A stretch of 64,000 nt of DNA from Caldicellulosiruptor naganoensis (lineage in GTDB: Bacteria; Bacillota; Thermoanaerobacteria; Caldicellulosiruptorales; Caldicellulosiruptoraceae), in NCBI RefSeq assembly GCF_026914285.1, contig NZ_CP113864.1, positions 1,085,001 to 1,149,000 of the forward strand, read 5' to 3'. Shown here in pieces: positions 3,032-47,213 of the stretch. How positions within the stretch are numbered: the first letter of the stretch is position 1; each line of letters opens with the position of its first letter. The position numbers and the translations under genes were made by a program. The notes under the pieces are model-generated. The model ran no database searches and was not told the DNA's origin. It saw only the letters and a list, made by a program, of their open reading frames with translations.

Positions 3032-3060
3032 AAAGTGAGAAAGTAAAATATTTTTAATAA

Positions 3061-3096
3061 GGCCATTCGATTGTAAGAATGGTCTTTTTATTTTTT
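3061..3096 (+). terminator. Intrinsic terminator after the SH3-like gene
   Basis: GGCCATTC (3061-3068) pairs with GAATGGTC (3077-3084) and is followed by TTTTTATTTTTT. It separates the upstream gene from aroK, whose own -10 box (TATAAT, 3116-3121) lies just downstream. Confidence 0.85.
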
Positions 3097-3174
3097 CAAT
3101 ATAAAGATTTTATGGTATAATAAATACAAACTTTCACACTATACGGCTTATTAAAAAAGGAAAGGTATATTAAA

Positions 3175-3693
3175 ATGAAGAACATTGTCCTAACAGGATT
3201 TATGGGAAGTGGCAAGACAACCATAGGGAGATTAATTGCAGAAAAATTGAAGATTGATCTTGTTGACACCGACTCTGAGATAATAAAAGAGTTTGGGCTG
3301 ACAATTGACCAGATATTCGAAATACATGGCGAGAAAAAATTTAGAGAATGCGAAAAAAGAGTTATTGAAAGAGTTTCAAAGCTTGAAAACGTTGTTATAT
3401 CAACAGGTGGAGGAGTTGTTTTGGATCCTGAAAATGTAAGACTTTTAAGAAAAAATGGAGTCATTTATTTTTTGTACGCATCTCCTGAAAGTATTCTAAA
3501 AAGGTTAAAAGATGATAACACAAGACCGCTTCTGAAAAATGGTGACAAACTTAGCAACATTATAAGACTTATGAACCTGAGAATGCCGTTTTATAAGAAC
3601 TGTGATTTTGAGATAAACACAGATATCTTAAGTCCTGATCTTGTAGCTGAGAAGATAATTTCAATCCATATGGCAAAGGAGAGTTGGAAATGA
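3175..3693 (+). CDS. aroK: Shikimate kinase
   Basis: 172 residues, the normal length for the family. Phosphorylates shikimate with ATP, step five of the chorismate pathway that feeds the trp operon downstream. The Walker A motif GFMGSGKTT is at residues 8-16, the D-x-D of the shikimate site is in LVDTDSEI (about 30-37), and GGG in STGGGVV (about 82) is the conserved substrate-binding loop. A good Shine-Dalgarno (AAAGGAAAGG) precedes the ATG. The stop overlaps the start of the next gene, so aroK, the AP-endonuclease-like gene and aroQ are translationally coupled. Confidence 0.95.
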   Translation: MKNIVLTGFMGSGKTTIGRLIAEKLKIDLVDTDSEIIKEFGLTIDQIFEIHGEKKFRECEKRVIERVSKLENVVISTGGGVVLDPENVRLLRKNGVIYFLYASPESILKRLKDDNTRPLLKNGDKLSNIIRLMNLRMPFYKNCDFEINTDILSPDLVAEKIISIHMAKESWK

Positions 3694-4562
3694 CAAGGTT
3701 TGGGCCTGCAGGTAACTCCCAGAGCTTTTACGATGCAGGATACAAGTCCAGTGTTGAAGCACCAAAGTGGCTTCATTCTATAGGGCTTTCAGCTTATGAA
3801 TATCAATGCAATAAGGGTGTAAACATTTCAAAGGAGAAAGCAAGGCAAATAGGAGAAGAAGCCAAAAAGTATGATATACTTATATCTATTCATGCTCCTT
3901 ATTATATAAACCTTGGCAGTCAAGAGGAAGAAAAATTGCAAAAGTCAAAAGAATATATTTATGAATGTGTTGAAATTGCAAAAGAAATGAAAGCTGAGCG
4001 GATTGTGTTTCATCCTGGTTCTTGTGCAAAGGTTGACAGAAAACTTGCTTTTGAGACAGCCAAAAAAGCTATACTTGAGGTTGTAAATGTAGTCAAGGAA
4101 ATGAAAGCAGAAGGAATTTTTTTGTGTCCTGAGACAATGGGTAAGAAAAACAACCTTGGAAGTGTGGATGAGATAATAGAAATATGCAAGTTGGACGAAA
4201 TTCTTCTTCCGACAGTTGACTTTGGACATATAAATGCATTTACTGGTGGGAGTTTAAAGACTAAAGAAGATTTTGTGATTCTTTTGAAAAAATTTATTGA
4301 CCAGCTTGGATATGAAAGAATGAAAAGATTTCACAGCCATTTTAGCAGAATTGAATACACATCACAAGGAGAAAAGAAACACTGGAACTATGAAGACAAA
4401 CAATATGAACCTGACTTTGAACCTTTGGCCGAAGCCCTTGTTGAGCTAAAGCTTGAGCCTGTTATTATCTGTGAGTCAAAAGATTATATGAGTGAAGATG
4501 CAATTGTGCTAAAGAAGATATACCTGGAAATATTAGAAAAGAGGATGGGAGAAATAAAATGA
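3690..4562 (+). CDS. AP endonuclease 2 family (Nfo/EndoIV-like) TIM-barrel protein
   Basis: 290 residues. The fold family cleaves abasic sites in DNA using a trinuclear Zn centre, or isomerises sugars. Metal-ligand-like residues are visible in order: H in SIHAPYY, H and E-like positions in RIVFHPGS and LCPETMG, D and H in TVDFGHINA, H in FHSHFS, and E in IICESKD. These fit the EndoIV-type pattern. I chose ATG 3690 rather than the upstream TTG 3684 because AGGAG at 3677-3681 gives an 8-nt spacer. The ATG overlaps the aroK stop. Its place between aroK and aroQ is odd for a repair enzyme, so a role in metabolism cannot be excluded. Confidence 0.8.
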   Translation: MTRFGPAGNSQSFYDAGYKSSVEAPKWLHSIGLSAYEYQCNKGVNISKEKARQIGEEAKKYDILISIHAPYYINLGSQEEEKLQKSKEYIYECVEIAKEMKAERIVFHPGSCAKVDRKLAFETAKKAILEVVNVVKEMKAEGIFLCPETMGKKNNLGSVDEIIEICKLDEILLPTVDFGHINAFTGGSLKTKEDFVILLKKFIDQLGYERMKRFHSHFSRIEYTSQGEKKHWNYEDKQYEPDFEPLAEALVELKLEPVIICESKDYMSEDAIVLKKIYLEILEKRMGEIK

Positions 4563-5005
4563 AAAAGATTTTGATTATAAATGGACCTAATCTTAACCTT
4601 TTGGGTGTTAGAGAGAAAAATATATATGGCACAACAACTTATAATGAACTATTAGAAATAATATCGAAAAAAGCGAGTGAACTCGGGTTAGATGTCCTTT
4701 TTTTTCAATCAAATCATGAAGGTGAAATAATAGATAGAATCCACAGAGCACTTGAGGAGAATATAGAAGGTATAATTATCAACCCAGGTGCCTACACTCA
4801 TTATAGTTATGCTATACACGATGCAATAAAGGCCGTCAACCTTCCAACCATTGAAGTTCATATTTCCAATATTCACGCAAGAGAAGAGTTCAGAAAAAGA
4901 AGTGTAATTGCACCCGCATGTATAGGGCAAATTTCAGGCTTTGGTATCAAGAGCTATATAATTGCACTGTATGCGCTAAAAGAGATTTTAAATCGAGACA
5001 ACTAA
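4559..5005 (+). CDS. aroQ: 3-dehydroquinate dehydratase, type II
   Basis: 148 residues. Dehydrates 3-dehydroquinate to 3-dehydroshikimate, step three of the shikimate pathway. The N-terminus IINGPNLNLLGVRE is the family signature, the catalytic Tyr is in NIYGTTTY, NPGAYTHYSYA (about 77-87) binds substrate, and EVHISNIHAREEFR holds the catalytic His region. The ATG overlaps the preceding TGA (ATGA at 4559), indicating coupling. Together with aroK it forms a small shikimate unit upstream of trp. Confidence 0.95.
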   Translation: MKKILIINGPNLNLLGVREKNIYGTTTYNELLEIISKKASELGLDVLFFQSNHEGEIIDRIHRALEENIEGIIINPGAYTHYSYAIHDAIKAVNLPTIEVHISNIHAREEFRKRSVIAPACIGQISGFGIKSYIIALYALKEILNRDN

Positions 5006-6342: not shown

Positions 6343-7662
6343 CGTTATCAAGGTGCAGTTTATAATATTCCTTTCTTTGAGGAATATTCCAACAATTCAA
6401 TAGACATATCTCATATTGATTTTGAGTCAATAAAAGAAGATTACTTTTACTTCGAAAGTTCTCAAATAGTAGCATTCTGTTATGATATTCTTTTGTCCAT
6501 TAAGGTGTTTGGAAACAGAATTGAATTTGAAGATAGTTCTACTAAAATAATTGAGTACAAAGAAGTTTTAGAAAAGACCAATAACATCTTAATGCATCTT
6601 ATTGAAAAGAATGCCTTCATTACAACACGGTTTAATTACCATGCCATAAATTTAATAGAAGATATTTACTCTACTGATGAGCCATATATCGTATTCACTG
6701 TATACAAAAAGAATTTTTTGGTTGACAAAATCTCAGGGATTAGCAAAGTAGTTATTCCTAAAGGGCTTGAATTCAAAGGCAAAGACTTTGTCAAATTTAA
6801 TAAAAATACCAAAAAAGTAACAAGTAGAGTTTTGTACAACACACCAAAAGATTACTACATCAGCATAGTCAAACAAGCAAAAGAGGATATAAGAAATGGA
6901 GAAATTTTTCAGATTGTACTGTCTCAAGTGATAAAGATAAAAAGCGATATTTCAACAAACCAGCTCTTTTACAAAATGAAAGAAAAGAATCCGTCTGAGT
7001 ATTCTATTGTAATAAATACCAAAGATGAGCAGATTGTTTGTTTTTCACCAGAGACGCTGATTAAAAAGGAGAAAAACATTGTAAAGACATTTCCTATTGC
7101 TGGCACATACAGAATCAATGATGGTGATGATGTTGGACAAAAGAAGATAGAAATATTAAAAGACAAGAAAGAAATCAGTGAACACGTCATGCTTGTAGAT
7201 CTGGCCAGAAATGATTTGGGAAGAATCTCAAAGGCCGGCACGGTAAAGGTAGAAGAGTATCTACAAATAAAAAAGCTTTATAACCTCATACACATCTACT
7301 CAGTTGTCACAGGTGAGCTGGAAGAGAAAAATCTTATAAAAGCAATACTTTCAGTGTTTCCGGCAGGAACACTTACAGGTGCACCAAAGGTAAGAGCTAT
7401 GCAACTTATAGAAAAATATGAAAGTCAAAGACGGGGACTTTATGGGGGAGCAATAGGTTATATTTATAAAGACTCCCTTGACTTGGCAATTGCAATCAGA
7501 ATGGCCATAAAAGACAAAAAAGAAAATACTTTCCTTCTTCAGAGCGGAGCTGGAATTGTTAATCTTTCTATTCCTGAGAATGAATATCAAGAGTGTTTAA
7601 CGAAGCTGAGAGCCTTTTTGAAAATTATGGAGGTGGATGAGAATGATATTGTTAATAGATAA
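6283..7662 (+). CDS. trpE: Anthranilate synthase component I
   Basis: 459 residues. Converts chorismate plus ammonia (from TrpG) to anthranilate. The C-terminal chorismate-binding core is complete: IFQIVLSQV, SYE-like NPSEYSIV, PIAGTYR, DLARNDLGR, FPAGTLTGAPKVRAMQ and LQSGAGIV. The N-terminal regulatory half is short and divergent; the usual Trp-binding segment with PVS is not obvious. The first 20 codons include the attenuator hairpin (RPDSSSGLF). ATG 6283 has AGGAG 5 nt upstream; ATG 6295 in the same frame is the alternative. No start codon with a plausible site lies downstream of the hairpin. First gene of trpEGDCFBA. Confidence 0.93.
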   Translation: MSYKMKKAAYVRPDSSSGLFRYQGAVYNIPFFEEYSNNSIDISHIDFESIKEDYFYFESSQIVAFCYDILLSIKVFGNRIEFEDSSTKIIEYKEVLEKTNNILMHLIEKNAFITTRFNYHAINLIEDIYSTDEPYIVFTVYKKNFLVDKISGISKVVIPKGLEFKGKDFVKFNKNTKKVTSRVLYNTPKDYYISIVKQAKEDIRNGEIFQIVLSQVIKIKSDISTNQLFYKMKEKNPSEYSIVINTKDEQIVCFSPETLIKKEKNIVKTFPIAGTYRINDGDDVGQKKIEILKDKKEISEHVMLVDLARNDLGRISKAGTVKVEEYLQIKKLYNLIHIYSVVTGELEEKNLIKAILSVFPAGTLTGAPKVRAMQLIEKYESQRRGLYGGAIGYIYKDSLDLAIAIRMAIKDKKENTFLLQSGAGIVNLSIPENEYQECLTKLRAFLKIMEVDENDIVNR

Positions 7663-8254
7663 CTACGATTCATTTACATTCAATATTTATCAGATGATTG
7701 CAAGCAAAACTCAGGTAGTAGTTTTTAGAAACGACAAGGTTACAATTGACACCATACAAAAACTAAGCCCTGCAGGAATAATAATCTCACCTGGGCCAGG
7801 AAGTCCCAAAGATGCAGGTATTTCATCAGAGGTAGTAAAGAAGTTCGCGGGGGTAGTCCCAATATTGGGGGTATGTTTGGGACATCAGGTGATAGGCGAA
7901 TGTTTTGGAGCAAGAGTTGTGCATGCAAAATCTATATACCATGGAATGAGGTCTCGAGTAGACTTATTAGAAGCAGGTAAAAGAAGTCCACTTTACAAAG
8001 GTGTGCCAGACAGGTTCTTTGCAGGCAGATACCATTCTTTGGTTGTAGAAAAGACAGCATCATTGCAGGGACTCAAAATAGCCGCAGTAAGTGAAGATGA
8101 CGAGGTTATGTCAATTTTAAATGATGAGCTAAAAATATATGGAATTCAATTTCACCCTGAATCAATATTGACACCTGATGGGGAAAAGATATTACAGAAC
8201 TTTTTAGATTTGTGTTATGGGCAGGTGAAAGAAGATGCTCAAAGAGGCGCTTGA
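7643..8254 (+). CDS. trpG: Anthranilate synthase component II (glutamine amidotransferase)
   Basis: 203 residues. Class I glutamine amidotransferase delivering ammonia to TrpE. Visible: [13 protein letters not shown] at the N-terminus, the oxyanion segment SPGPGSP, the nucleophile elbow GVCLGHQ with catalytic Cys, and the His-Glu pair in IQFHPES. ATG 7643 is preferred over ATG 7637 because GGAGG (7629-7633) then sits 9 nt upstream. It overlaps the end of trpE by 20 nt. Confidence 0.95.
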
Positions 8255-9245
8255 GGTTATAACAGCAAAAAAAGATTTGGATTATGTCCAAGTAAAAAGA
8301 CTTTTGGAAAGCATACTTGATGGCGAGCTTGATGAGATAAAGTTTGGAGCTTTTTTGGCAGCACTCAAAACAAAGGGGGAAACAAAAGAAGAAATTTCTG
8401 CTTTTGTCGACGCATTTTATGAAAAGGCTCAAAAGATTGAATATAGTCACCCAAAAACCATAGACACATGCGGCACTGGTGGAGATGGCAAAGGTACATT
8501 CAATATTTCAACTGCAAGTGCGATAGTTCTTAGCTGCTTTGATTTAAAGGTTGCAAAACATGGTAACAGAAGTATTACGAGCAACTCTGGCTCTGCAGAC
8601 ATCTTAGAGAATTTGGGAATAGATATTCAGGCATCAGCTCAAAAGATTTTAGAAGGCTTAGAAAGGCTTAATTTTGCATTTTTATTTGCACCCGTGTACC
8701 ATCCAGCAATAAAAAAGGTAGCAAATGTGAGAAAGTCGCTTGGTATAAGAACAGTTTTTAACATCTTAGGTCCGCTTTTGAACCCTGTAAGTTTGAACTA
8801 TCAAGTTGTTGGTGCTTTTGATTGTGAAGCACAGGAAAAGATAGCTTCTGTTTTGAAAGGAAGAAGAAAAAGAGCGGCCGTTGTCCACAGCCTTGATGGG
8901 CTTGATGAAATTTCGGTTTCACAAAAAACAAGAGTTTTAGAGTTGCAAGGTGATAATGTCAAAGAATACTACATAGACCCAAAAGAGTATGGTATAGAGT
9001 ACACACTTGATGATATTAAAGGATATACCCCGCAAGAGAATGCAAAAATTCTGATGAGTATTTTAAATGGCGAGGTTTCTGCTTATTATTGGGCAGTTGT
9101 TCTAAATTCTGCTTTTGCTCTTTATATTGCCGAGGTTGCAAATGATATTGAAGAAGGTATTGCTTTGTGCCAAAGTGCAATAAAAAAAGGTGATGCTATG
9201 TTAAAGCTTAAAGATTTGCAACAACACTATAAAGTGGGGGCTTAA
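8235..9245 (+). CDS. trpD: Anthranilate phosphoribosyltransferase
   Basis: 336 residues, the family length. Transfers phosphoribose from PRPP to anthranilate. The PRPP-binding motif [16 protein letters not shown] (about 75-90), [15 protein letters not shown] and the anthranilate-side [20 protein letters not shown] are all intact. Starts 20 nt inside trpG, indicating translational coupling. Confidence 0.96.
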
Positions 9246-9249
9246 AAAA

Positions 9250-10032
9250 GTGAGTGTACTTGAAAAGATATTAGATGTCAAGAAGAAAGAAGTCGAAAAG
9301 TGCAAACAATTAGTTCCAGTTACAAAAATGAAAAAATTAGCTATTGAAAAGTGCACTTCTACATCTTGCGAAAACAAGTTCAAGGAGATCTTTAAAAAAG
9401 AGAATTTTTGTATCATTGGTGAAATAAAGCGTGCATCTCCATCTGAAGGCATAATTTCTGAAAATGTTGATGTCAAAGAAATCGCAAAGCTTTATGAGAG
9501 CTTAGGGTTCTTTGCAATATCTGTGCTGACAGAAAAGAACTTTTTCAAGGGAACTGAACAGGACTTGATGGATGTCAAAAGTGCTACTTCTCTCCCTGTT
9601 TTGAGGAAGGATTTCATCATCGACATATGGCAACTGTACCAGACAAAAATAATCGGTGCAGATGCTGCTTTACTTATCACAAAAGCCTTGAGTGAGAAGC
9701 AGCTCAGCATTTTTATAAAGGTGTTAGAGATTCTTGACATTGTTCCTCTTGTTGAAGTTGAAAACGAATATGAGATTGAAAAAGCTTTAAATTGCGGGGC
9801 TAAATTGATAGGGATTAATAACAGAAATTTGGATGATTTAACAATTGACCTTAAAAAAACAGAAAGACTTTTGAAATATATTCCAAAAGATGTAGCAGTT
9901 ATAAGCGAAAGTGGGATAAAATCAAGAGAAGACTTTGAGTATATCCGTTCTTTGGGTGTGGATGGCTGTCTTATAGGAACATCCTTTATGAAGACTCAAA
10001 ATCCTGTTGAGATAATTGGTGAGAGAATATGA
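9250..10032 (+). CDS. trpC: Indole-3-glycerol phosphate synthase
   Basis: 260 residues. Ring-closing decarboxylation of CdRP to indole-3-glycerol phosphate on a TIM barrel. Catalytic Lys in GEIKRASPSEG, PVLRKDFI and the phosphate-binding loops IGINNRNLDDL and ISESGIKS are visible. GTG start four bases after the trpD stop. Confidence 0.95.
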   Translation: MSVLEKILDVKKKEVEKCKQLVPVTKMKKLAIEKCTSTSCENKFKEIFKKENFCIIGEIKRASPSEGIISENVDVKEIAKLYESLGFFAISVLTEKNFFKGTEQDLMDVKSATSLPVLRKDFIIDIWQLYQTKIIGADAALLITKALSEKQLSIFIKVLEILDIVPLVEVENEYEIEKALNCGAKLIGINNRNLDDLTIDLKKTERLLKYIPKDVAVISESGIKSREDFEYIRSLGVDGCLIGTSFMKTQNPVEIIGERI

Positions 10033-10643
10033 TAGTGAAGTTTTGCGGCATAAGAAGAGAAGAAGATGTTGAGTACTGCAACATCTTAAGTCCAACTATG
10101 ATAGGTTTGATCTTTGCCGACAGTCCAAGGAAAGTTGAAAAAGACACTGCAAAGAGACTGCTGGCTATGAAAAATCCTTCTATAAAATCGGTTGGAGTTT
10201 TCAAGAACCAAACTCTCAGCGAAGTCTTAAGTATAAGTAAAGATTTAAAACTTGACTTTATACAACTACATGGCAATGAAAGTATCGAGTTTATCACATA
10301 CTTAAAAAGCCAAGGTTTCAAGATTATTAAAGCAGTCGAGGTAGAGAAGGTAAATGACATTGAAAGATCAAAAATTTATAAGGACATAGTAGACTTTATC
10401 CTTCTTGACAGACCAAAGGGGAAGGAGATAGATATAGTTCAGCTTGCAAAAAATGCCGATTTTGATTTTATCGTTGCAGGTGGAATTACACCCGAAAATA
10501 TTGAAAAATATCTTGCGCTCAATCCTCTTGGGATTGATATCAGTTCAGGGATAGAGACAAATGGATTTAAGGATTTTAACAAAATGAAAACTATCATAGA
10601 AAAATTAACAAAATACAAGGTTGGTGAAGTTAAAAATGGATAA
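10029..10643 (+). CDS. trpF: Phosphoribosylanthranilate isomerase
   Basis: 204 residues. Amadori isomerisation of PRA to CdRP. Contains the catalytic Cys in [15 protein letters not shown], the LHGNE strand, a catalytic Asp in FILLDRPKG and the phosphate loops [10 protein letters not shown] and [10 protein letters not shown]. The ATG overlaps the trpC stop by 4 nt. Separate from trpC, not fused as in enteric bacteria. Confidence 0.95.
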
Positions 10644-38996: not shown

Positions 38997-39025
38997 TTGA
39001 CAAAGCAATAACCTTGTGCTAAAAT
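38997..39025 (+). promoter_or_regulatory. Promoter of tRNA-Leu(TAG)
   Basis: TTGACA (38997-39002), 17-bp spacer, TAAAAT (39020-39025). The same box pair occurs ahead of both copies of the tRNA-Leu(TAA) 5' half. Confidence 0.75.
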
Positions 39026-39042
39026 AAATTACGCAAAGACAA

Positions 39043-39127
39043 GCGGGTATGGCGGAATTGGCAGACGCGCTAGACTTAGGATCTAGTGGCAACAGCCGTG
39101 GGGGTTCAAGTCCCTCTACCCGCACCA
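39043..39127 (+). tRNA. tRNA-Leu (anticodon TAG)
   Basis: GCGGGTA (39043-39049) pairs with TACCCGC (39117-39123), discriminator A, encoded CCA. The anticodon loop CTTAGGA gives TAG. A long variable arm is present. It is intact and lies just outside the integrated element. Confidence 0.97.
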
Positions 39128-39162
39128 AAAGATAAACACTCTTGACAAGTGAAAGGAAAGAG

Positions 39163-39222
39163 ATTAAAATATATAATTGCGATGCCGGAGTGGCGGAACT
39201 GGCAGACGCACAGGACTTAAAA
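39163..39222 (+). repeat. attL: promoter -10 and 5' half of tRNA-Leu(TAA)
   Basis: Sixty bases identical to 47022-47081. It covers TAAAAT, the start of the tRNA (GCCGGAG at 39184) and the gene up to the anticodon loop (CTTAAAA), where identity stops. A TTGACA at 39142-39147, 17 bp before TAAAAT, makes a complete promoter, so this truncated tRNA half is still likely transcribed, now into the element. Confidence 0.93.
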
Positions 39223-39353
39223 CTACCAAATATGGATGTAATTAGAAACTAAGAATTATCAAGGCTTTGAACATTTTAAATTTACACAATTGAGTAAAAA
39301 GGTCTGTTATGGTCATGAAATAAAAACAGGAGAACAAAGTATTATCCAAACGC

Positions 39354-39400
39354 AACCACCAAACACCGAAAGAATAAAAGTAGGTGTGAGGTGGTTTTTA
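39354..39400 (+). promoter_or_regulatory. Hairpin sequestering the integrase ribosome binding site
   Basis: AACCACC (39354-39360) pairs with GGTGGTT (39390-39396) and ACACC (39363-39367) with GGTGT (39383-39387), with a 2x2 internal loop. The 3' arm contains GAGGTG, the Shine-Dalgarno of the integrase, and runs into TTTTTATT. It could act as a terminator for read-through from the tRNA promoter, as a translation block, or both. Confidence 0.6.
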
Positions 39401-39402
39401 TT

Positions 39403-40362
39403 ATGCCTAAACAACTCAAAGTCAACAATTCAAATTCAGATTGGGAAGACGCATTACAGCTTTTCTTATCTTACAAAAAAGCACAAGGTAGAAGTGATTT
39501 AACGATTAGGGACTATGAACGTCACATCAGTTCATTTTTTAGACGTTACCCAGATTGCTTTAATGACACAGAGAAGTTAAGAAAGTGTTTGATTGAGTAT
39601 TTATCGCAACCAATGAAACCAGTGACTTACAATCTGAGAATGAAAAACTTAAAAGCCTTTTTAAATTGGTGTGTTGAAGAAGGGATTATTCCGTCAAATC
39701 CCATTGCTAAATTCAAGCCAAGAAAGACAGATGACAGAATTGTTGAAATTGACATTGAAACACTTCAAAAGCTACTCCAGTTACCAGATAGAAAGACATT
39801 TGCTGGTTTACGTGATTATGCATTGATGTTATTGACACTTGACACAGGAATAAGACCTAAAGAAGCCTTTTCATTGCTAAAAGACCATTTTGATTTTAAG
39901 AATTTGCAGGTTGTAATTCCTTCAGATGTAGCAAAGACAAGAGTATCAAGAGTGCTGCCAATCTCACCAGTAACAGCAAACGCAATAAAAAAACTCATCT
40001 CTTCAAGACATCCCCAATGGGATGACAGCGTTCCTGTATTTTGTTCAGTATCAGGAAAGCCTTTAAACAGGTATAGATGGAATGAAAGAATGAGAGAGTA
40101 TAGTAAACAATTAGGTGTGAAAATAAGACCATATGATTTAAGGCATATGTTTGCTTTGCTGTATCTCAAAAATGGTGGTTATGAATTGAGTTTGCAAAAG
40201 ATAATGGGACATACAACATTGGAAATGACAAAAAAGTACGTCCACTTTACCCAGAAAGACCTACAAGAAATTCATGCAAAGGCAACACCGATTAACACTT
40301 TGCTAAAACAACCCTTAAACAGGGTTGGGAATATAAAAAATCAAAATAAAAAGAAAGAGTGA
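39403..40362 (+). CDS. Tyrosine recombinase / integrase
   Basis: 319 residues. N-terminal SAM-like core-binding domain (about 20-100, LQLFLSYKKAQGRSDLTIRD) and a catalytic domain: first Arg in TLDTGIRPKEAF, Lys region in TRVSRVLPIS, second box RPYDLRHMFALLYLKNGG, GH in IMGHTTLEMT and nucleophile Tyr in KKYVHF. The usual first His of HxxR is Tyr here, a tolerated change. ATG 39403 with GAGGTG about 10 nt upstream. It sits next to attL and is the likely integration/excision enzyme. Confidence 0.93.
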   Translation: MPKQLKVNNSNSDWEDALQLFLSYKKAQGRSDLTIRDYERHISSFFRRYPDCFNDTEKLRKCLIEYLSQPMKPVTYNLRMKNLKAFLNWCVEEGIIPSNPIAKFKPRKTDDRIVEIDIETLQKLLQLPDRKTFAGLRDYALMLLTLDTGIRPKEAFSLLKDHFDFKNLQVVIPSDVAKTRVSRVLPISPVTANAIKKLISSRHPQWDDSVPVFCSVSGKPLNRYRWNERMREYSKQLGVKIRPYDLRHMFALLYLKNGGYELSLQKIMGHTTLEMTKKYVHFTQKDLQEIHAKATPINTLLKQPLNRVGNIKNQNKKKE

Positions 40363-40370
40363 GTTTAAAG

Positions 40371-40700
40371 ATGTTATACCATTTTTATGATGAGGAAAGC
40401 AAAATAGACTTCTTTGTTGGCTACAGTGACGTGTTTAAAGACAATCAGGTTGCAGGTGGTGGTTGTTTAATTTTAGAGGAAATGGGCATTTAAAATGTTT
40501 ATCTTCAAGTGAACAGAAAAATTGACAGAGACAAAAGAATAAAAGCGAGGTTTAAGCTATTAGAAGGGATTGATAAGGCTTTAGGAATGTTACCATTTCA
40601 AAGTAGTGTTGTAAGAGTGTATGCCGACGAGGACAAGCTTTCAGGTGTAATTGCTGTAGTGGACGAAAAAGAAGACGCAGAAGTTGTTATGACATACTGA
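40371..40700 (+). pseudogene. Small element gene with an in-frame stop codon
   Basis: ATG 40371 opens a 40-codon frame (MLYHFYDEESKIDFFVGYSD ...) ending at TAA 40491-40493. The same frame continues with NVYLQVNRKIDRDKRIKARF and on to a stop at 40700, giving a would-be protein of about 109 residues. Either the gene is broken by one nonsense change, or two small genes lie in the same frame (a GTG start at 40509 has no clear ribosome binding site). It begins 8 nt after the integrase stop. The family is not recognised. Confidence 0.55.
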
Positions 40701-40960
40701 GACAAAAAAGTTGTATGCACAAGTTTAAGCAACCTGTTTTATGTAAACTTTGTCAGGTAGAACACATGTTTGAGTATACCTTAATAGGGTATGGTATTAA
40801 GAAAAGAAAATAGCAATACCAAGCATTTGAATTGATGGCAAAATGCACAATAAAAATGAAGTATTCACTGCTATAAGTCATTGTTTTACCTTTTATTTCA
40901 ACAGTATCAAGGTTTTGCATATAGTGCAATTTTCACATAATAGCTAAAAAAATAAGGGTT

Positions 40961-41066
40961 TTGCAAGAGTTGTGGTATAATAATATATAGAAGGGTAAAA
41001 AGTGAATACTTTTAAAAGCTGCCTTCAGAAGAAGTTTTAAGCTTCTTTGGGGCAGCTTTTATTTTT
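40961..41066 (+). ncRNA. Candidate short transcript or attenuator leader ahead of XRE gene 1
   Basis: Possible promoter TTGCAA (40961-40966), 17-bp spacer, TATATA (40984-40989), with TATAAT also at 40976. About 20-75 nt downstream is a strong hairpin: GCTGCC (41018-41023)/GGCAGC (41051-41056) stacked on AAGAAG/CTTCTT, then TTTTATTTTT. A transcript would be about 70 nt unless it reads through into the XRE gene at 41096. The rest of 40701-41095 shows no gene. Confidence 0.45.
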
Positions 41067-41095
41067 GAAAAACACAGGAAAGGGGTTGTTTTGAG

Positions 41096-41308
41096 ATGAC
41101 AAAATTAGAATATTTGAAAAAACAGCATAATTTATCATCAGCTAAACTATCTTTGGCAGCTGGTATTAATTACACCTTGTTGACTTCAATTGAGAGAGGG
41201 GAAAGAAAAGCTTATCCAAAAATTAAAAGGAGATTAGCCGAATTTTTCAATGTGGCAGAAGATGACTTGTTTAATGAAGATGGGTCGTTGAAAGAGATTG
41301 AGGATTAA
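41096..41308 (+). CDS. XRE/Cro-type helix-turn-helix protein 1
   Basis: 70 residues, one HTH domain (LSSAKLSLAAGINYTLLTSI, about 14-33) and the tail NEDGSLKEIED. Likely repressor or activator of element functions. It is a paralogue of the next gene: both have ERGxRKxYPK in the recognition region and end in a xPDG/NEDG-S/TLK motif. Confidence 0.88.
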   Translation: MTKLEYLKKQHNLSSAKLSLAAGINYTLLTSIERGERKAYPKIKRRLAEFFNVAEDDLFNEDGSLKEIED

Positions 41309-41325
41309 TCTTTTTCAAGTAACAA

Positions 41326-41435
41326 TTGTGCAAAATCACGATTTTTAGAGGCAATTTATAGCTTCTAAAAGGAAAATCAGAAAGTAATTTAAGAAAAAAG
41401 TAGTTTTTTCAAGCACTAAAACATTTGTGCAAAAT
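41326..41435. repeat. Two TTGTGCAAAAT sites between the XRE genes
   Basis: TTGTGCAAAAT at 41326-41336 and TTTGTGCAAAAT at 41424-41435, 98 bp apart, in the 290-bp gap between the two regulators. The same motif, inverted and direct, recurs three times near the right end of the element. They may be operators or integrase arm sites. Confidence 0.45.
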
Positions 41436-41598
41436 ATGATTGTAAGGTGAGTATAAAAGTGGGAAATTATTAACAACTATGAGTTCTTTTGCTACACTAT
41501 ATTTAGGTTGAAGTAATTTTTAAAGAACAAGATATTGATGTTGCCCATTACTTTGAATATATTAAGTAGTGATAAAAAAAAAAGAAGGAGTGATATTT

Positions 41599-41820
41599 AT
41601 GACAGTTTTAGAAAAAATTAGAAAAGACAAGGGATTATCTCAAAGCAAGTTAGGACTTGCAATCGGTGTAAATCCTAACCTAATTTCACAAATCGAAAGG
41701 GGTTGGCGAAAACCTTATCCAAAATTATTGCAGTCTCTGGCAACGTTTTTGGGTGTGTCCATAGAAGAAATTGCAAATCCAGATGGCACACTAAAGGTGG
41801 TGGACAGCAAAACGGCATAA
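41599..41820 (+). CDS. XRE/Cro-type helix-turn-helix protein 2
   Basis: 73 residues. HTH domain KGLSQSKLGLAIGVNPNLIS (about 11-30), ERGWRKPYPK, then NPDGTLKVVDSKTA. ATG 41599 with AAGGAG 8 nt upstream is chosen over a GTG 30 nt earlier. With gene 1 it probably forms the control switch of the element. Confidence 0.88.
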   Translation: MTVLEKIRKDKGLSQSKLGLAIGVNPNLISQIERGWRKPYPKLLQSLATFLGVSIEEIANPDGTLKVVDSKTA

Positions 41821-41909
41821 AAAAAAAAGTGGTTCTTTTTTAAAACCACTTAAACAAGAAACAATTTTATTCTCCATTTAATTTTAATTATATCACAGCC
41901 AAAAGTCAA
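41819..41909 (-). ncRNA. Candidate antisense small RNA
   Basis: Minus strand: TTGACT (41909-41904), 17-bp spacer, TAAAAT (41886-41881), then about 25 nt of leader, a hairpin AAGTGGTT/AACCACTT (41851-41827) and ten T residues. It would give an RNA of about 55 nt that ends against the last codon of XRE gene 2. Plasmids often use such short RNAs for copy control; the role here is inference. Confidence 0.4.
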
Positions 41910-41963
41910 GAGTTATCAAAAAATAGTAGGCAATTTTCTGAAAATGAAAGGGGGTTTACAAAA

Positions 41964-42290
41964 ATGTTAATGAAAGTTTACAACAAATTTTTGCAACGCG
42001 AGGTTGTAGCTGGTGATTATAATTCCAGCGAAAAAGTCTTTTACAAAGAAGTTTTTACACGCAGCAAGTTACTTGTCCTAAATGCGTATGGAATTGAAAA
42101 GTGCGTTGTTGAAAAACTCAAGGAAAGAGGTTGTAAGCTAATACGGATTGAGGAGGTAGATACAGGAAATATCTTTGAAATTGACTTTGACAAGTTTATC
42201 GAAAAAGCTATTTTGCGTACATTTGGCAATTCCACGGAACAGTATTATTTGCCGCTAAAATACTTTACAAAGGTTGAAAAGGCTTCTTAA
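41964..42290 (+). CDS. Element protein of unknown function (108 aa)
   Basis: 108 residues, mixed alpha/beta, one Cys, no membrane segment. AAAGGGGG lies about 10 nt before ATG 41964; ATG 41970 is also possible. It ends just before a hairpin ahead of the primase gene. No family is recognised. Confidence 0.65.
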   Translation: MLMKVYNKFLQREVVAGDYNSSEKVFYKEVFTRSKLLVLNAYGIEKCVVEKLKERGCKLIRIEEVDTGNIFEIDFDKFIEKAILRTFGNSTEQYYLPLKYFTKVEKAS

Positions 42291-42298
42291 AATCCTTC

Positions 42299-42328
42299 GC
42301 TGCCCTATTCGGTTACCGGTAGGGCGGC
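42299..42328 (+). promoter_or_regulatory. Long hairpin ahead of the primase-helicase gene
   Basis: GCTGCCCTA (42299-42307) pairs with TAGGGCGGC (42320-42328); an inner CGG-TTA-CCG extends the stem. No T-run follows, so it is not a simple terminator. It could be an RNA control element or a single-strand initiation structure. Confidence 0.5.
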
Positions 42329-42372
42329 TTAATTGGTCTAAAATCAGCAAAACAAAAAAGGGGGGGCACAAA

Positions 42373-44202
42373 GTGGAAGCTAAAGACATTGTAAAGGCAA
42401 TCAAAGAAAAAATTGATATTGTTGACTACATAGGACGGTTTTTGTTCTTACAAAAGGAAGGTAGCAGCTACAAGGCTATCTGTCCATTTCACCCAGATAA
42501 AAACCCATCGTTTTATATCAAGCCCAGCGAACAGTTTTTTCATTGCTTTGGCTGTGGCGTTGGCGGTGATGTCATCAAATTTGCCCAGCTTTACCATAAC
42601 ATATCCTTTGGGGAGGCAATTAAGATGTTAGCCGAGGAAATAGGTTTGCCTATTAGTGATAAGCAAGCAGAAAACTTTACGCAAGACCAAAAACTTTCTC
42701 ATGACCAAATTGTAGCATATGTCGAAATATGTTCACAATGTGCAAAACTAACAAACTATTTCGCTGATAGGGGAATTTCACCTACCCTAATTGAGAAGTA
42801 CAAGCTGGGATATGATGTTGAAAATAACGCAATTGTACTACCTATCTTCCAAGACGGGCAGATAATAAGCTATGTGCGTCGCAATCTTGATGATAACAAG
42901 CCACGTTATGAATTCCCTAAAGGACACAAAGCGATACCTTTCAATTTGGACATACTCAAAGACGACCTGCAAACTAACGTTTTTATCACTGAAGGAATTT
43001 TTGACGCATTAACAATTGAAGCAGCAATTGGACAGCCAGCAATCGCACTAAATGGCTGCGAAAATCAAAACGAGTTTGTACAAATCCTAAATCGTATTAA
43101 GCCAGAGAACAAGAAGTTTTTTATCCTGTTTGACAACGACGAGGCAGGCAGCAAAGCAGCAAAACAACTTTTTGATAAGATGAAAAAACAGTATGAAGTG
43201 GCTATTTGTAGATGGGAAGGTGCACCTTACAAAGACATCAACGAGTTTTGGCAAAACTCTCAAGACGAGTGTATAAAGTTTTTAAAATGGCAGCTTAAAG
43301 CGGCTTTTTATCCCTATGCACTCATTAATTTTGCTGCCCAGTATGTTGATTTTCTCAAGTCTGATAAATTCAAAGCTATTTCCACAGGATTTAAGCAATT
43401 AGACGATGTGTTAAATGGGGGTTTTGTACCAGGAAACCTGTATGTCTTTGGTGCAAAGCCCAGCGTTGGTAAAACAACGTTTTTGTTGCAACTTATAGAC
43501 AACTTCTTACAGCAAGGTTATGAGTGTGTCTTCCTATCTGCCGAAATGCCAAAAGAAGAGATTTTGACAAGGATTTTTTGCCGTGAATATGGGCTTAGAA
43601 AGGCAAACGTGAAAGTCCCTGCTTTTGACTTCTATCGCAAACTCAGGACAAGAACAGCAAGAGAAGAAGAAATGCAAGAGTACATGAATGTTGTCAGAGA
43701 TTACACCCAAAAATTTGCTTTCAAGCTGCATATTGTGGAAGAACAAAAGCTTGACGATGTACCTTATATTCTTGACCGATTACAAAAACCTATCTTGTTC
43801 ATTGATTACTTACAGCTTCTCCAACCAGCAAAACCATATCAAAGCGATAAGCAACGAGTTGACCTGATAATGCAAGAGTTGTTTGAAATTAAAAACAAGT
43901 TTTTACTCCCAGTTGTAGCTATCAGCAGCTTGAATAGGGAAAGCTATGACGACGATGATATAAAAGCTTTCAAAGAATCTGGTTCAATTGAATATGGAAC
44001 AGCAGCCGCTTTCCTAATGAAAAGAGATGACGACAAACCTATTCACGATGACTACAAAGGTAATGGTTATACAATCAAATTCAATTGTGTCAAAAACAGA
44101 TATGGCAGCATAGGGGATGACATAACAATGCGATTCTGGGGTGGCATATACCTATTCGAGGAGGTTGAAAACAGTGAGAGAAAACCAAGCTTTGACAAGT
44201 AA
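42373..44202 (+). CDS. Primase-helicase fusion (CHC2 zinc finger, TOPRIM, RecA/DnaB-type)
   Basis: 609 residues. Residues 37-61 are a CHC2 zinc finger (CPFH ... CFGC), about 200-260 a TOPRIM domain (ITEGIFDA, FDNDEAGS) that makes primers, and from about 345 a DnaB-like helicase: Walker A GAKPSVGKTTF (about 360), LSAEMPKEEI, Walker B PILFIDYLQLL (about 474) and the Gln-like sensor region VVAISSLNRES. The order matches phage T7 gp4/Twinkle-type primase-helicases. GTG 42373 after GGGGGG. It would let the element replicate on its own helicase. Confidence 0.93.
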   Translation: MEAKDIVKAIKEKIDIVDYIGRFLFLQKEGSSYKAICPFHPDKNPSFYIKPSEQFFHCFGCGVGGDVIKFAQLYHNISFGEAIKMLAEEIGLPISDKQAENFTQDQKLSHDQIVAYVEICSQCAKLTNYFADRGISPTLIEKYKLGYDVENNAIVLPIFQDGQIISYVRRNLDDNKPRYEFPKGHKAIPFNLDILKDDLQTNVFITEGIFDALTIEAAIGQPAIALNGCENQNEFVQILNRIKPENKKFFILFDNDEAGSKAAKQLFDKMKKQYEVAICRWEGAPYKDINEFWQNSQDECIKFLKWQLKAAFYPYALINFAAQYVDFLKSDKFKAISTGFKQLDDVLNGGFVPGNLYVFGAKPSVGKTTFLLQLIDNFLQQGYECVFLSAEMPKEEILTRIFCREYGLRKANVKVPAFDFYRKLRTRTAREEEMQEYMNVVRDYTQKFAFKLHIVEEQKLDDVPYILDRLQKPILFIDYLQLLQPAKPYQSDKQRVDLIMQELFEIKNKFLLPVVAISSLNRESYDDDDIKAFKESGSIEYGTAAAFLMKRDDDKPIHDDYKGNGYTIKFNCVKNRYGSIGDDITMRFWGGIYLFEEVENSERKPSFDK

Positions 44203-45091
44203 ATTCATAGCCGAAATTAACCTTGCCATCAACCCAATTGTACCCTTTAGGGGAACAGCAACATTACAAAATGGCAAAGTCTTTTGGGAAAGTAAAACCA
44301 GTGAAGGCGGTATCATAAAAGGCATGAGTACGCGTACCCTAACAGAATTTGACCGAGAAATTTACTTTGCTATCCTCACCTATAAGGTCGAGAATGGTAT
44401 TATCGACAACACTTTTGAAATTCCCTTGACCTACCTTTTGAAAAAGAAAGGACTTAAAGTTTGCAAAGCGAATAAACAGAAACTTTTTGAGACCCTTTAT
44501 ACCCTTTTCCAAACAGGAATCCAAAGAGAGGAGTTTTATCGTCCCAATGGAGAGAGGAAAAAAGAAAGCTTCTATTTGCTGACTTCTTTAAGTTACTGTT
44601 ACAAAATCCTCAAAGAAGACAAAGAAGAAGAACGCAAAATAGGAGAAAATGATAGCTGGCTGCCTACCCAAGAAGGGAAGTACGTCAAGAAGGTCAAAGT
44701 TAGCATTCCACCTTCTATCAATGAAAACATCAATTTGCGTTACCTAATTTTTGGCGATTATCGAGTAATTGAAAAAATCAACAAAAACCAAGTCGCAAAG
44801 CGAATTTACTACTACTGTTTAAGTCGTTGCCGCAAGAACAATACACACAAACGTAACAAGGCAGCATTCATAAATGACATAATCCCCGAAAAACCATTAG
44901 AACAAGCAAGACCTTTAGTCATGCAAGCTTTGTCCTTGCTACAACAGTTAGGAGTGATTAGCTACCACTTTGACCTAAAAGATAATATCATCCTGCAAAT
45001 AACCGAGAAAGCACAAAAACATCTGGATGTTATAAATATACAGCTTGAAAAGTATAATTATACAGTCACACAGCAAGAAAAGCGGGAGTAA
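44174..45091 (+). CDS. Probable replication initiator protein
   Basis: 305 residues, basic, all-soluble, with winged-helix-like segments (FDREIYFAILTYKVENG and ARPLVMQALSLLQQLGVISY). No enzymatic motif is visible. Three 23-bp iterons start within its last codons and its stop lies inside iteron 1, the typical layout of plasmid Rep genes that bind iterons. GTG 44174 has GGAGG 9 nt upstream and overlaps the primase-helicase by 29 nt. The exact Rep family is not identified. Confidence 0.7.
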   Translation: MRENQALTSKFIAEINLAINPIVPFRGTATLQNGKVFWESKTSEGGIIKGMSTRTLTEFDREIYFAILTYKVENGIIDNTFEIPLTYLLKKKGLKVCKANKQKLFETLYTLFQTGIQREEFYRPNGERKKESFYLLTSLSYCYKILKEDKEEERKIGENDSWLPTQEGKYVKKVKVSIPPSINENINLRYLIFGDYRVIEKINKNQVAKRIYYYCLSRCRKNNTHKRNKAAFINDIIPEKPLEQARPLVMQALSLLQQLGVISYHFDLKDNIILQITEKAQKHLDVINIQLEKYNYTVTQQEKRE

Positions 45092-45145
45092 TTACCTATG
45101 AAAAGCGGGAGTATTTACCTACGAAAAGCGGGAGTAATTACCTGA
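45077..45145 (+). repeat. Three 23-bp iterons, probable replication origin
   Basis: GAAAAGCGGGAGTAATTACC occurs at 45077, 45100 (one change, TATTTACC) and 45123, each 23 bp apart. Iteron 1 spans the stop codon of the initiator gene. An adjacent AT-rich stretch and a perfect hairpin at 45209 complete an origin-like region. Confidence 0.85.
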
Positions 45146-45208
45146 CTTTTAGGGGACGCAAACCCTTGAAAATTCTGAGTTTTTCCCTTTTAAACTTAAA
45201 CATAAATA

Positions 45209-45231
45209 GGGAAGGGGTAAACCCTTCCCTA
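45209..45231. other. Perfect hairpin beside the iterons
   Basis: AGGGAAGGG (45209-45217) pairs with CCCTTCCCT (45223-45231) over GTAAA. No T-run follows on the plus strand; it may be part of the origin or control the next gene. Confidence 0.6.
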
Positions 45232-45310
45232 ACTGAATGAATAAAAATTACACACATGCTTTTCCCCTGCTTGAATAAAGTTGCAAACGCAAAAGGTGGA
45301 GGTTGCTGGT

Positions 45311-46030
45311 ATGCGACCGTGGGAGTGGCTTGCCCTAATTGAAGAGTCCAAGAATGTTGCAAACAATGTTGGCGTTGCTGCTGGTTGTCCATTGGTTGCT
45401 ACTGTTATAATGGACAAGGCAGCTATAACGCTGGTTAACCAAGTTAACCCAGTAAAAGCAGCAAGTAAGCAAGTTAACCACACAATAAGGCTTATGACTG
45501 AACTTGAAATAAGGGAAGTTGTAACAAAACAAAAGCCTTCCTACTTTGCAAAGCTGAAAAAGAAGGCTTATGACAAGCAACTTTGCAGTAAGGAAGGGCA
45601 TTTCTGGGCTATGATGGAGAGACTATCACAGGAGTTTGGAAAGAAAACTCCCAGTGAAAATGATTTGCAGCTGTACACAAAATTTGCAAAGTGTGCACAG
45701 CGAGAATGGGAAATTGAAAAGCTACAAACTTCCCTAAAAGTCAAGTGTCCTGCATGTAACGGTATAGATTTTGAGTTTGCCGAAAAAAGGCAGCAAAAGG
45801 GGTTTGTTTGCTTACAGTGTTTGAAAACAACGGGTAGAGTTGAATTTGTGGTTGGCGTTAAAATCGAAAACGATGTGACAGAATGGGCAGAACGCATAAC
45901 ATTAGGAACAGGACACCTTGTCCCTAATAGCAAGTGTACACGCTGCGGTGCAAGTTTTAAATGGTTTAGCAGCGACAAATGGGAAGGCTGGCTTTGTAGT
46001 GGTTGTGGCGAGGAATTTATAACGTGCTAA
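45311..46030 (+). CDS. Double zinc-ribbon element protein, function unknown
   Basis: 239 residues. The N-terminal half is helical and hydrophobic in part (NVANNVGVAAGCPLVATVIM). The C-terminal half has two Cys4 sets: CPAC ... CLQC (about 149-175) and CTRCG ... CSGCG (about 211-235), two zinc ribbons. ATG 45311 with GGTGGAGG 8 nt upstream. As the last gene and next to the origin, it may act in replication, partition or as cargo. No family recognised. Confidence 0.7.
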   Translation: MRPWEWLALIEESKNVANNVGVAAGCPLVATVIMDKAAITLVNQVNPVKAASKQVNHTIRLMTELEIREVVTKQKPSYFAKLKKKAYDKQLCSKEGHFWAMMERLSQEFGKKTPSENDLQLYTKFAKCAQREWEIEKLQTSLKVKCPACNGIDFEFAEKRQQKGFVCLQCLKTTGRVEFVVGVKIENDVTEWAERITLGTGHLVPNSKCTRCGASFKWFSSDKWEGWLCSGCGEEFITC

Positions 46031-46059
46031 AAGGCTTTAAAACGTGCATTAATTAGCAG

Positions 46060-46091
46060 GGACGTATCAAAATACGTCCTTTGTGTTTTTC
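46060..46091 (+). terminator. Terminator after the zinc-ribbon gene
   Basis: GGACGTAT (46060-46067) pairs with ATACGTCC (46072-46079) over CAAA, followed by TTTGTGTTTTT. It ends the element's main transcript. Confidence 0.85.
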
Positions 46092-47021
46092 GTTCAAAAG
46101 AAACCGGTTTCAAAGGATTTTGTCTTAAAAAATTGCCTTTGAGATTAGAAGTATCAAGGAATAGAAGGCAATTTATTTCTAAACAAGCAATATCAAGACT
46201 TTTCAGGTTTTGTTGAAAAATGGTATTTGCAATATAGAGACTGAATTGTTTATGTTAAGGTGTGAAGGTTATAAAAAGCTGGCAAATTCTTGAAATAATT
46301 TACATAAGTTGACAGTTAAAATACTGGGCAGGGATAGTAAAAGACTGGATTGAATGAGGTTAACATAATGCAACGTTTTGCACAAAATGAGTAAACTTTA
46401 GTGGGGTATTGGGTTTACACATCCAAGCCTTGAGAGATGGCTAATTGAGAATGATTTTCAATTAGAAAAATAGGGTCAAACTGCGTTATTTTGTAACTGG
46501 TAATGAAGAAGATAGGGCAGTTTACAGAAAAGAAAATAAATTACAACAAAGATGATTATTAGCATTTGGAAAGCCAAAGCTATGGCATAGTAAGACAAAT
46601 AAGGTGACGTTGTAAATTTATGTTTGCACAAAATAGCATTTTTGTGCAATGTTAAAATATAGAATTGATTTCTGGCAGCAAGTGTAAGGAAAGTAAAGCC
46701 ATGAAGCAGCCAAAAGCAAGGTGTAGGGGCAAGAAATTGAAGAAGGTTCATTGTTGCGTGCTGCCTTTAGCCGATATTTTGAAGCATAAAATTAGATGTT
46801 ATGATATGCTGTTATGGCAACAGATAGCAATTAAACTCAAACAAATTTTCTCTATTGAGAATTCTTTACTTTGGGGTTAAACTGATAACGAACAAACCAT
46901 ACAGGATTTTTGAATGTTTTAATTTGAGAACACTTAAAAGTCCTGTTCGGTAAATGAGTTTTTTAAAGGTGTTTGGTGGTTTTTGCGAGTAAAAAAACTC
47001 TTGACAATGCTTGAAAACCCT
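46092..47021. other. Right-end noncoding region of the element
   Basis: About 930 bp without a supported gene. It holds three TTTGTGCAAAAT-like sites (46376-46388 inverted, 46623-46634 inverted, 46639-46650 direct; the last two form a near palindrome). It ends with TTGACA (47001-47006), which is the -35 of the restored tRNA promoter. Position next to attR suits integrase arm sites or excision control. Confidence 0.5.
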
Positions 47022-47029
47022 ATTAAAAT
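47001..47029 (+). promoter_or_regulatory. Element-supplied promoter of the tRNA-Leu(TAA) cluster
   Basis: TTGACA (47001-47006), 17-bp spacer, TAAAAT (47024-47029). The -35 and most of the spacer lie outside the 60-bp repeat, so they came with the element. It resembles the original promoter left at 39142-39170 but the spacer differs. Confidence 0.75.
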
Positions 47030-47081
47030 ATATAATTGCGATGCCGGAGTGGCGGAACTGGCAGACGCACAGGACTTAAAA
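47022..47081 (+). repeat. attR: identical 60-bp copy
   Basis: Identical to 39163-39222. It ends in the anticodon loop of the intact tRNA-Leu(TAA). Confidence 0.93.
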
Positions 47082-47132
47082 TCCTGGGACCTGAATAAGG
47101 TCGTACCGGTTCAAGTCCGGTTTCCGGCACCA
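47043..47132 (+). tRNA. tRNA-Leu (anticodon TAA), reconstituted at attR
   Basis: GCCGGAG (47043-47049) pairs with TTCCGGC (47122-47128), discriminator A, encoded CCA. The anticodon loop CTTAAAA gives TAA. The 5' half up to the loop comes from the element, the 3' half from the host chromosome. Confidence 0.95.
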
Positions 47133-47137
47133 GATAT

Positions 47138-47213
<76 letters not shown>

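What the first reader, a model, noticed from the sequence alone, without database searches (positions are those of the whole stretch)
39163..47081. A 7.86-kb integrative element with its own replication module and no obvious cargo
Perfect 60-bp flanking repeats, an integrase, two paralogous XRE regulators, a CHC2-TOPRIM-helicase fusion, a probable Rep protein, iterons and two unknown proteins. It lacks capsid, packaging and mobilisation genes. It may be an integrating theta plasmid or a satellite that uses another element's transfer. The set is compact, and I do not recognise it as a described family.
Basis: partly seen in the sequence, partly recalled or inferred. Interest (0 to 1): 0.8.

Follow-up and report, generated by a model that had tools for sequence, protein, structure and literature searches.

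The report
Mosaic integrating plasmid in tRNA-Leu gene
A small DNA parasite of heat-loving bacteria inserts itself into a gene for a transfer RNA, hands that gene a new promoter and front half, and carries a replication kit borrowed from a second family of such parasites, some of which also carry what looks like a phage DNA-packaging gene.

Summary
In detail: a 7,859-bp element with perfect 60-bp ends sits in a tRNA-Leu(UAA) gene of a Caldicellulosiruptor genome. It is, or recently was, mobile: the site is occupied in 3 of 12 genus genomes and empty in 9; seven relatives sit there or in tRNA-Leu(CAA), tRNA-Arg and tRNA-Trp genes; its integrase is 98.5% identical to one in a species whose flanks are mostly 72-78% identical. 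It is a mosaic: ends, integrase and first XRE from a tRNA-Leu lineage; second XRE, p108, primase-helicase and zinc protein from a tRNA-Arg/Trp lineage; Rep and iterons a third, diverged cassette. The 'paralogous XREs' look like a fusion scar. In all eight elements one edge of the repeat lies at the anticodon loop, but Leu elements carry the tRNA's 5' half plus promoter, Arg/Trp elements the 3' half; so the tRNA here runs on an element-borne promoter. Three of the five relatives with the same module, and the free plasmid pATHE01, carry a probable small terminase; this element does not. Best reading: an integrating iteron plasmid from a satellite-like family, transfer route unknown. New variant of a known kind. 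No circle or transfer was tested.

The parts
39142..39170 (+). host tRNA-Leu promoter (TTGACA-17-TAAAAT), displaced by the element and now reading toward int
   Evidence: 11 of 12 consensus; resembles the spacer at the empty site of G011 and differs from the right copy
39163..39222 (+). left direct repeat (attL): -10 region plus 5' half of tRNA-Leu; anticodon loop at 39216-39222
39354..39396 (+). hairpin that pairs the int ribosome-binding site, followed by a T run; its 5' arm (39354-39367) is also inverted-repeated at 46968-46981 (candidate integrase arm site)
   Evidence: -18.4 kcal/mol, z -4.2; pairs kept in 7 elements; inverted repeat I23
39403..40362 (+). tyrosine integrase
   Evidence: PF00589 7.7e-28; 98-99% to the integrases of G003a and G005
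40359..40700 (+). p113, start overlapping the int stop; broken here by a premature stop; among the eight elements found only in the four of the tRNA-Leu lineage
41096..41308 (+). XRE1, from the tRNA-Leu lineage
   Evidence: 90-93% to G005 and G001
41599..41820 (+). XRE2, from the tRNA-Arg/Trp lineage
   Evidence: 72-78% to the four Arg/Trp elements, 83% to the mosaic G003a
41964..42290 (+). p108, unknown conserved protein
   Evidence: 79-82% in 4 elements, 44% in G003a
42373..44202 (+). CHC2 zinc finger - TOPRIM - DnaB-type helicase fusion
   Evidence: 73-88% in five sister elements, one of them with an in-frame stop
44174..45091 (+). Rep initiator (inferred), about 30% to sister Reps
   Evidence: model weak over all, its C-terminal part (about 200-280) at pLDDT 71-91 looks winged-helix-like
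45077..45143 (+). three 23-bp iterons, inferred origin
45311..46030 (+). zinc-ribbon protein, conserved in the module
   Evidence: 67-79% in five sister elements
46058..46114 (+). terminator-like hairpin and flank where similarity switches from the Arg/Trp lineage to the Leu lineage
46058..47021 (+). right arm of the tRNA-Leu lineage, no frame above 91 codons
   Evidence: 86-98% to G005
47001..47029 (+). element-borne promoter that now serves the host tRNA
   Evidence: 11 of 12 consensus; DNA upstream of it shared by the three occupied sites, unlike the host copies
47022..47081 (+). right direct repeat (attR); anticodon loop at 47075-47081
47043..47132 (+). reconstituted tRNA-Leu(taa)

Best explanation
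The element is an integrating, iteron-type theta plasmid that arose by mosaic exchange. Shown by sequence comparison: a tyrosine integrase and attachment ends of the tRNA-Leu type; a junction that leaves the host tRNA-Leu(UAA) with an element-supplied promoter and 5' half; relatives at other sites and in other species; a replication module shared with a second lineage. Inferred: strand exchange at the 7-nt anticodon loop (from the repeat edges). The excised circle re-joins the two ends, so that int is then read from the element's own tRNA promoter through a hairpin that masks its ribosome-binding site. Rep binds the 23-bp iterons and the primase-helicase fusion opens and primes the origin, sparing the host DnaG and DnaB. 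The XREs keep this off while integrated. Spread between cells uses someone else's machinery. Phage particles are the leading candidate, because close relatives carry a probable small terminase.
For: Site occupied in 3 of 12 genomes, empty in the other 9. Integrase 98.5% versus flanking chromosome mostly 72-78% to G005. Mosaic blocks. Rep and iterons vary together: 23-bp arrays directly behind rep in 6 of 6 elements with this module, the divergent Rep with the most divergent iteron. Primase-helicase relatives occur on small circular plasmids together with Rep and a tyrosine integrase: pSMQ-316, p29887. Small-terminase assignment in relatives.
Against: No circular form, copy-number or transfer data. 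Rep has no known family and a poor fold model (mean pLDDT 52), and profile comparison with a Rep_3 plasmid protein found nothing. p113, perhaps needed for excision, is broken here, so this copy may be stuck. No small terminase, and no DNA match to the two prophage regions examined (no rows for this element). The predicted circle junction was not found in viral contigs. The promoter scan as a whole is barely above chance (28 found, 21.9 expected); the two tRNA promoters are its two best matches.
Confidence: 0.72

Rival explanations
1. It is a phage satellite (PICI-like): induced by a helper phage, replicated by its own module and packaged in helper capsids, using the helper's terminase or that of a co-resident TerS-bearing satellite.
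For: Gene set int, XRE, primase-helicase/Rep without structural genes. Three of the five relatives with this module carry a probable small terminase plus a sigma-like gene; a relative of that terminase lies directly upstream of a large terminase in a G010 prophage and in 7 of 12 viral contigs. Some PICIs lack terS and carry pac or cos instead (PMC6092414, passages). Plasmid pMP1 of the thermophile Marinitoga, without terS, is packaged by a phage (PMC11921389, passages).
Against: No terS here, no DNA shared with the two prophage regions examined, XREs and int on one strand, and no large terminase of the two Pfam families searched in the own genome (other families not searched).
Confidence: 0.33
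2. It is a locked-in remnant: p113 was its excision factor and is broken, so the element is inherited vertically while its tRNA promoter keeps it fixed.
For: p113 overlaps the int stop, occurs among the eight elements only with the tRNA-Leu integrases, and has a premature stop here while three relatives are intact. Sister G003a at the same site has a stop in its primase-helicase and a frameshifted XRE1.
Against: The other element genes listed are open and conserved; the role of p113 is unknown; a 63-codon frame with a GTG start remains downstream of the stop.
Confidence: 0.2
3. It is a mobilisable element that travels by conjugation through a co-resident conjugative element acting on an unrecognised oriT.
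For: TraG/VirD4-type coupling protein in 7 of 12 genus genomes.
Against: None in this genome; no relaxase among the eight proteins scanned.
Confidence: 0.1

Closest known systems
Small circular plasmids with a CHC2-TOPRIM-DnaB fusion, Rep (Rep_3 type) and tyrosine integrase (pSMQ-316 of Streptococcus thermophilus; p29887 of Streptococcus sp.)
   Same: Related primase-helicase (26-27% identity over 97-99% of the query), own Rep, a tyrosine recombinase, HTH gene, no relaxase in the listed genes (that gene table is incomplete)
   Different: Held as free circles; their Reps hit PF01051 whereas the Rep here does not; no tRNA site looked for
pTN3-type archaeal integrative plasmids
   Same: Use the 5' half of a tRNA gene, and the rebuilt tRNA is expressed from the integrase promoter (PMC8371274, section 18 read)
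   Different: Archaeal; their integrase gene is split into int(N) and int(C) on integration (PMC8371274, passages), which does not happen here
Phage-inducible chromosomal islands (SaPI/PICI)
   Same: Integrase, HTH regulators, primase/Rep, no structural genes; three sister elements carry a probable small terminase
   Different: This copy lacks terS, XREs and int lie on one strand, no helper or induction shown
pATHE01, 8.3-kb plasmid of C. bescii (NC_012036.1)
   Same: Shares the TerS + sigma gene pair with the G007 element (62% and 71%) and has an ATPase related to that of G005 (46%)
   Different: No integrase among its listed genes; no relative of the primase-helicase or Rep of this element found on it
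pMP1 of Marinitoga piezophila
   Same: Plasmid of a thermophile without structural genes or terS, packaged by a temperate phage (PMC11921389, passages)
   Different: Integration is not mentioned in the passages seen; no sequence comparison done here
tRNA-dependent lysogeny of mycobacteriophages
   Same: The incoming element secures the function of the tRNA gene it integrates into (PMC10865867, abstract and outline)
   Different: There a whole phage-borne tRNA gene replaces a destroyed one; here the gene is rebuilt at the junction

Membership tests
Phage-inducible chromosomal island (PICI) | integrase and specific attachment site | tested here: met
Phage-inducible chromosomal island (PICI) | own replication genes and origin | tested here: met
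   gene content and iterons only; activity not shown
Phage-inducible chromosomal island (PICI) | divergently transcribed regulators beside int (recalled) | tested here: not met
   both XREs lie on the + strand, as does int
Phage-inducible chromosomal island (PICI) | terS or a helper pac/cos site | tested here: inconclusive
   no terS relative in this element; no shared DNA with the G010 and G006 prophage regions; other helpers and short pac/cos sites not examined
Phage-inducible chromosomal island (PICI) | phage-dependent induction and packaging | not testable with these tools
   needs culture
Integrative plasmid with 5'-half tRNA site (pTN3-like in function) | element restores the 5' half and promoter of the tRNA | tested here: met
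Integrative plasmid with 5'-half tRNA site (pTN3-like in function) | integrase gene split by integration (archaeal type) | tested here: not met
   int is a whole frame of 319 codons inside the element
Actinomycete integrative conjugative element | FtsK-like translocase for transfer (recalled) | tested here: not met
   no such family among the eight proteins scanned
Integrative mobilizable or conjugative element | relaxase | tested here: not met
   none among the eight proteins scanned
Temperate phage | capsid, portal, large terminase | tested here: not met
   none among the eight proteins scanned

The most novel reading that the evidence does not exclude
Caldicellulosiruptor hosts a genus-wide network of satellite plasmids that trade chassis (integrase and att ends), replication cassettes (helicase, Rep plus iterons) and a phage packaging cassette (TerS plus sigma). 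This element is a stripped, TerS-less member that is packaged in trans by phage or sister-satellite terminases. Its integrase lineage switched once from carrying the 3' half of a tRNA to carrying the 5' half with promoter, so that the only tRNA-Leu(UAA) gene found in this host depends on the parasite's promoter.
Probability: 0.3. Interest if true: 0.75.

Novelty: new variant of a known kind. Interest (0 to 1): 0.56.

Why it matters
It gives a compact natural experiment. Sister integrases with the same apparent crossover point carry opposite halves of the tRNA, so the evolution of tRNA-site polarity can be tested directly. Rep and iterons change together inside otherwise shared replication modules. 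Probable TerS genes on a small plasmid and on integrated elements of a cellulose-degrading thermophile point to phage-borne gene flow. The parts could also serve as integration and replication tools for this genus.

Tried and rejected
Considered and rejected: fixed unique remnant (seven related elements with both ends); XRE duplication within the element (each XRE groups with a different lineage); conjugative or mobilisable element by gene content. Defence function: PADLOC was run on p108, Rep, the zinc protein, the intact p113 of G003a and two cargo proteins of relatives (int, XREs and primase-helicase not run). For this element's three proteins the only match was Rep to LmuC at E 0.01; the G008 cargo matched PprRE at 0.0022; I give neither weight.

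Led nowhere: Rep against solved structures and against plasmid Rep_3 or unknown plasmid proteins by profile; Rep fold model mean pLDDT 52, no Foldseek match at E 0.001 or better, best RctB at 0.017; genome-contig scans gave none or only distant matches of 22-40%; viral-contig scans with Rep, the zinc protein and the predicted circle junction found none; the Rep hit G372 outside the genus has no convincing relative of the other module genes; motif TTGTGCAAAA as an operator: 4 in the window against 0.66 expected, one of them outside the element, not pursued; search of the whole element against plasmids found, in the ten rows listed, only the repeat/tRNA ends, about 1% of the query. In one search two outgroup rows were read on the wrong strand; that tree is discarded and one search used. 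G003b was left out of the hairpin count because its hairpin differs; it folds to -18.7 kcal/mol. The rows listed by the literature searches (several lists were capped; one search returned none) show no description of this family; pATHE01 is named in one held paper, PMC7071700, seen in the listing only. Williams 2002, the key review of tRNA sites, is not held and is known here only through PMC8371274 (section and passages) and the reference list of PMC4383910 (passages).
Full report
WHAT IS THERE. The window is G000:C1:1085001-1149000 of a one-contig 2.49-Mb genome. The genus is Caldicellulosiruptor, because genus-mate G002 contains the C. bescii plasmid pATHE01. The 60-bp repeats are perfect and 7,859 bp apart. 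The intact tRNA-Leu(taa) is at the right end and a 39-bp 5' fragment of it at the left. Pfam gives an integrase, two XREs and a CHC2-TOPRIM-DnaB fusion. p108, Rep and the zinc-ribbon protein match no Pfam or NCBIfam family above cut-off.

MOBILITY. All 12 genus genomes hold the tRNA cluster. The upstream DNA shows three occupied sites (G000, G003, G005) and nine empty ones, where the end of the preceding tRNA-Leu(tag) lies within about 75 bp. Seven further elements with both ends were mapped: G003a and G005 at the same gene; G001 at tRNA-Leu(caa) with a 99-bp repeat; G007, G010 and G008 at tRNA-Arg(tcg); G003b at tRNA-Trp. The integrase here is 98.5% identical in DNA to that of G005. The flanking chromosome that aligns is 78% on the left and 72-77% on the right, apart from tRNA stretches (93% over 146 bp, 80% over 100 bp); much of the right flank does not align. 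That points to recent movement between species. Against G003a the contrast is weak: integrase 97.8%, flanks 86 and 97%.

MOSAIC. By DNA similarity: window 39163-41434 is 93.7% to G005; 41529-44177 is 79-82% to G003b and G007 (72-75% to G008 and G010); between 44178 and 45255 no similar DNA was found in the seven elements at that threshold; 45256-46114 is 73-83% to the elements with this module; 46058-47081 is 86-98% to G005. XRE1 groups with G005 and G001 (90-93%), XRE2 with the Arg/Trp elements (72-78%). G005, G001, G007, G003b, G010 and G008 each show one XRE of these types. G003a shares the XRE1-XRE2 junction, with XRE1 frameshifted. G005 and G001, in tRNA-Leu genes, carry a different replication protein (32% to each other), which in G005 is a DnaB N-terminal domain plus an AAA ATPase. 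So a Leu chassis received an Arg/Trp replication module.

REP AND ITERONS. Rep is 30-34% identical to the five sister Reps, which are 86-94% identical to one another. Behind rep, all six elements with this module have 2.9-3.6 copies of a 23-bp repeat. Part of it is shared (AGTA..TACCT), the rest differs, and the copy here is the most different. This is what a Rep-specificity cassette would look like; binding is not shown. In 398 genomes of the phylum the Rep profile matched 5, four of them from this genus and one weakly (E 2.2e-4).

THE ATTACHMENT SITE. In 8 of 8 elements the 7-nt anticodon loop lies at one edge of the repeat: the last 7 bases in the four Leu elements, starting at base 4 in the four Arg/Trp elements. 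The int gene lies on the same side each time. The simplest reading is one crossover point, the loop, with attP carrying either the 5' or the 3' half of the tRNA. In a tree with six Xer-like chromosomal proteins as outgroup the Leu integrases form one clade (99/99), joined with the Arg integrases (98/98), with Trp outside. So 3'-half carriage is probably older and the 5'-half type arose once. The basis is small, 8 integrases of one genus, and the Trp row is flagged as long, so its place is less sure.

PROMOTER HAND-OVER. The two best promoter-like matches in 39000-47200 are the tRNA promoters at 39142 and 47001, both 11 of 12 (the scan as a whole found 28 against 21.9 expected). The DNA upstream of the right copy is nearly the same in the three occupied genomes and differs from the host versions in the nine empty ones; the left copies are host-specific. 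Hence the tRNA now runs on the element's promoter. By similarity no second tRNA-Leu(taa) was found in this genome; apart from the left fragment the next tRNA-Leu match is 76%. According to PMC8371274 (section 18) this arrangement is seldom met in bacteria.

INT LEADER. A hairpin covers the int ribosome-binding site (39354-39396; -18.4 kcal/mol, z -4.2). In 7 elements all 35 inner-stem cells pair, and each of the 5 positions changes on both sides in at least one element; 48 of 49 outer cells pair. These seven fall into about three lineages, so the evidence is moderate. A damping role on int is inferred.

PACKAGING LINK. Elements G007, G003b and G010 carry a 157-aa protein and a sigma-like protein. 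Relatives of the 157-aa protein give 17 matches in 10 of 12 genomes, none in this one. One lies directly before a large terminase, portal and capsid in a G010 prophage. In viral contigs 12 relatives were found, and in 7 a relative of that large terminase follows; one of the 7 is that same prophage and two others look alike, so about five are independent. In the other 5 no such relative was found; a frame of 500-620 codons follows. I therefore read the protein as a small terminase, although PHROGs lists its family as of unknown function and Pfam has no good match. In the ten other loci examined, pATHE01 included, the pair TerS-sigma occurs without relatives of the terminase, portal or capsid proteins taken from these prophages; one TerS is broken. 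Two partial matches (G005, G001) were not examined. This element has no trace of either gene, and G008 keeps a 33-aa fragment of the sigma-like gene. No DNA is shared between this element and the two prophage regions.

LIMITS. Genomes are one per species and unnamed. No reads, no circle, no transfer data. Functions of p108, p113 and the zinc protein are unknown.

Noticed in passing
L092 (G002:C2, NC_012036.1) 3117-4658: The free C. bescii plasmid pATHE01 carries the small-terminase-like gene and its sigma-like neighbour, so it may be a phage-packaged plasmid.
   Followed up: partly
L208/L209 (G010:C1:900000-939999): Prophage with TerS, TerL, portal and capsid, identical in the compared genes to contig IMGVR_UViG_649633025 (L217); a candidate helper beside a TerS-bearing element in the same genome.
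   Followed up: partly
G010:C1:1727717 onward (L027/L030): A second related integrase with a stop and part of a cargo gene follows the G010 element directly: a stacked remnant without a further att copy within the stretch read.
   Followed up: partly
L024/L029 (G003a, element positions 7251-10410): Transposase-like genes (IS110-like by eye, not scanned) inside the element, and a stop codon in the primase-helicase: a decaying sister element at the same tRNA-Leu site.
   Followed up: partly
L075 (G001 element, positions 2118-4265): 715-aa protein rich in Q and K with internal repeats (by eye), no PHROGs match, as cargo next to XRE1.
   Followed up: no
G007 and G010 elements 1225-2184 minus; G008 and G003b elements 1132-2427 minus: Two kinds of cargo protein, not matching each other, with C-terminal cysteine motifs by eye, occupy the same slot between int and XRE in the Arg/Trp elements.
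   Followed up: partly
G000:C1:264566 and 826799: Fragments of related integrases elsewhere in the own genome (59% and 49% over short stretches), traces of earlier elements.
   Followed up: no
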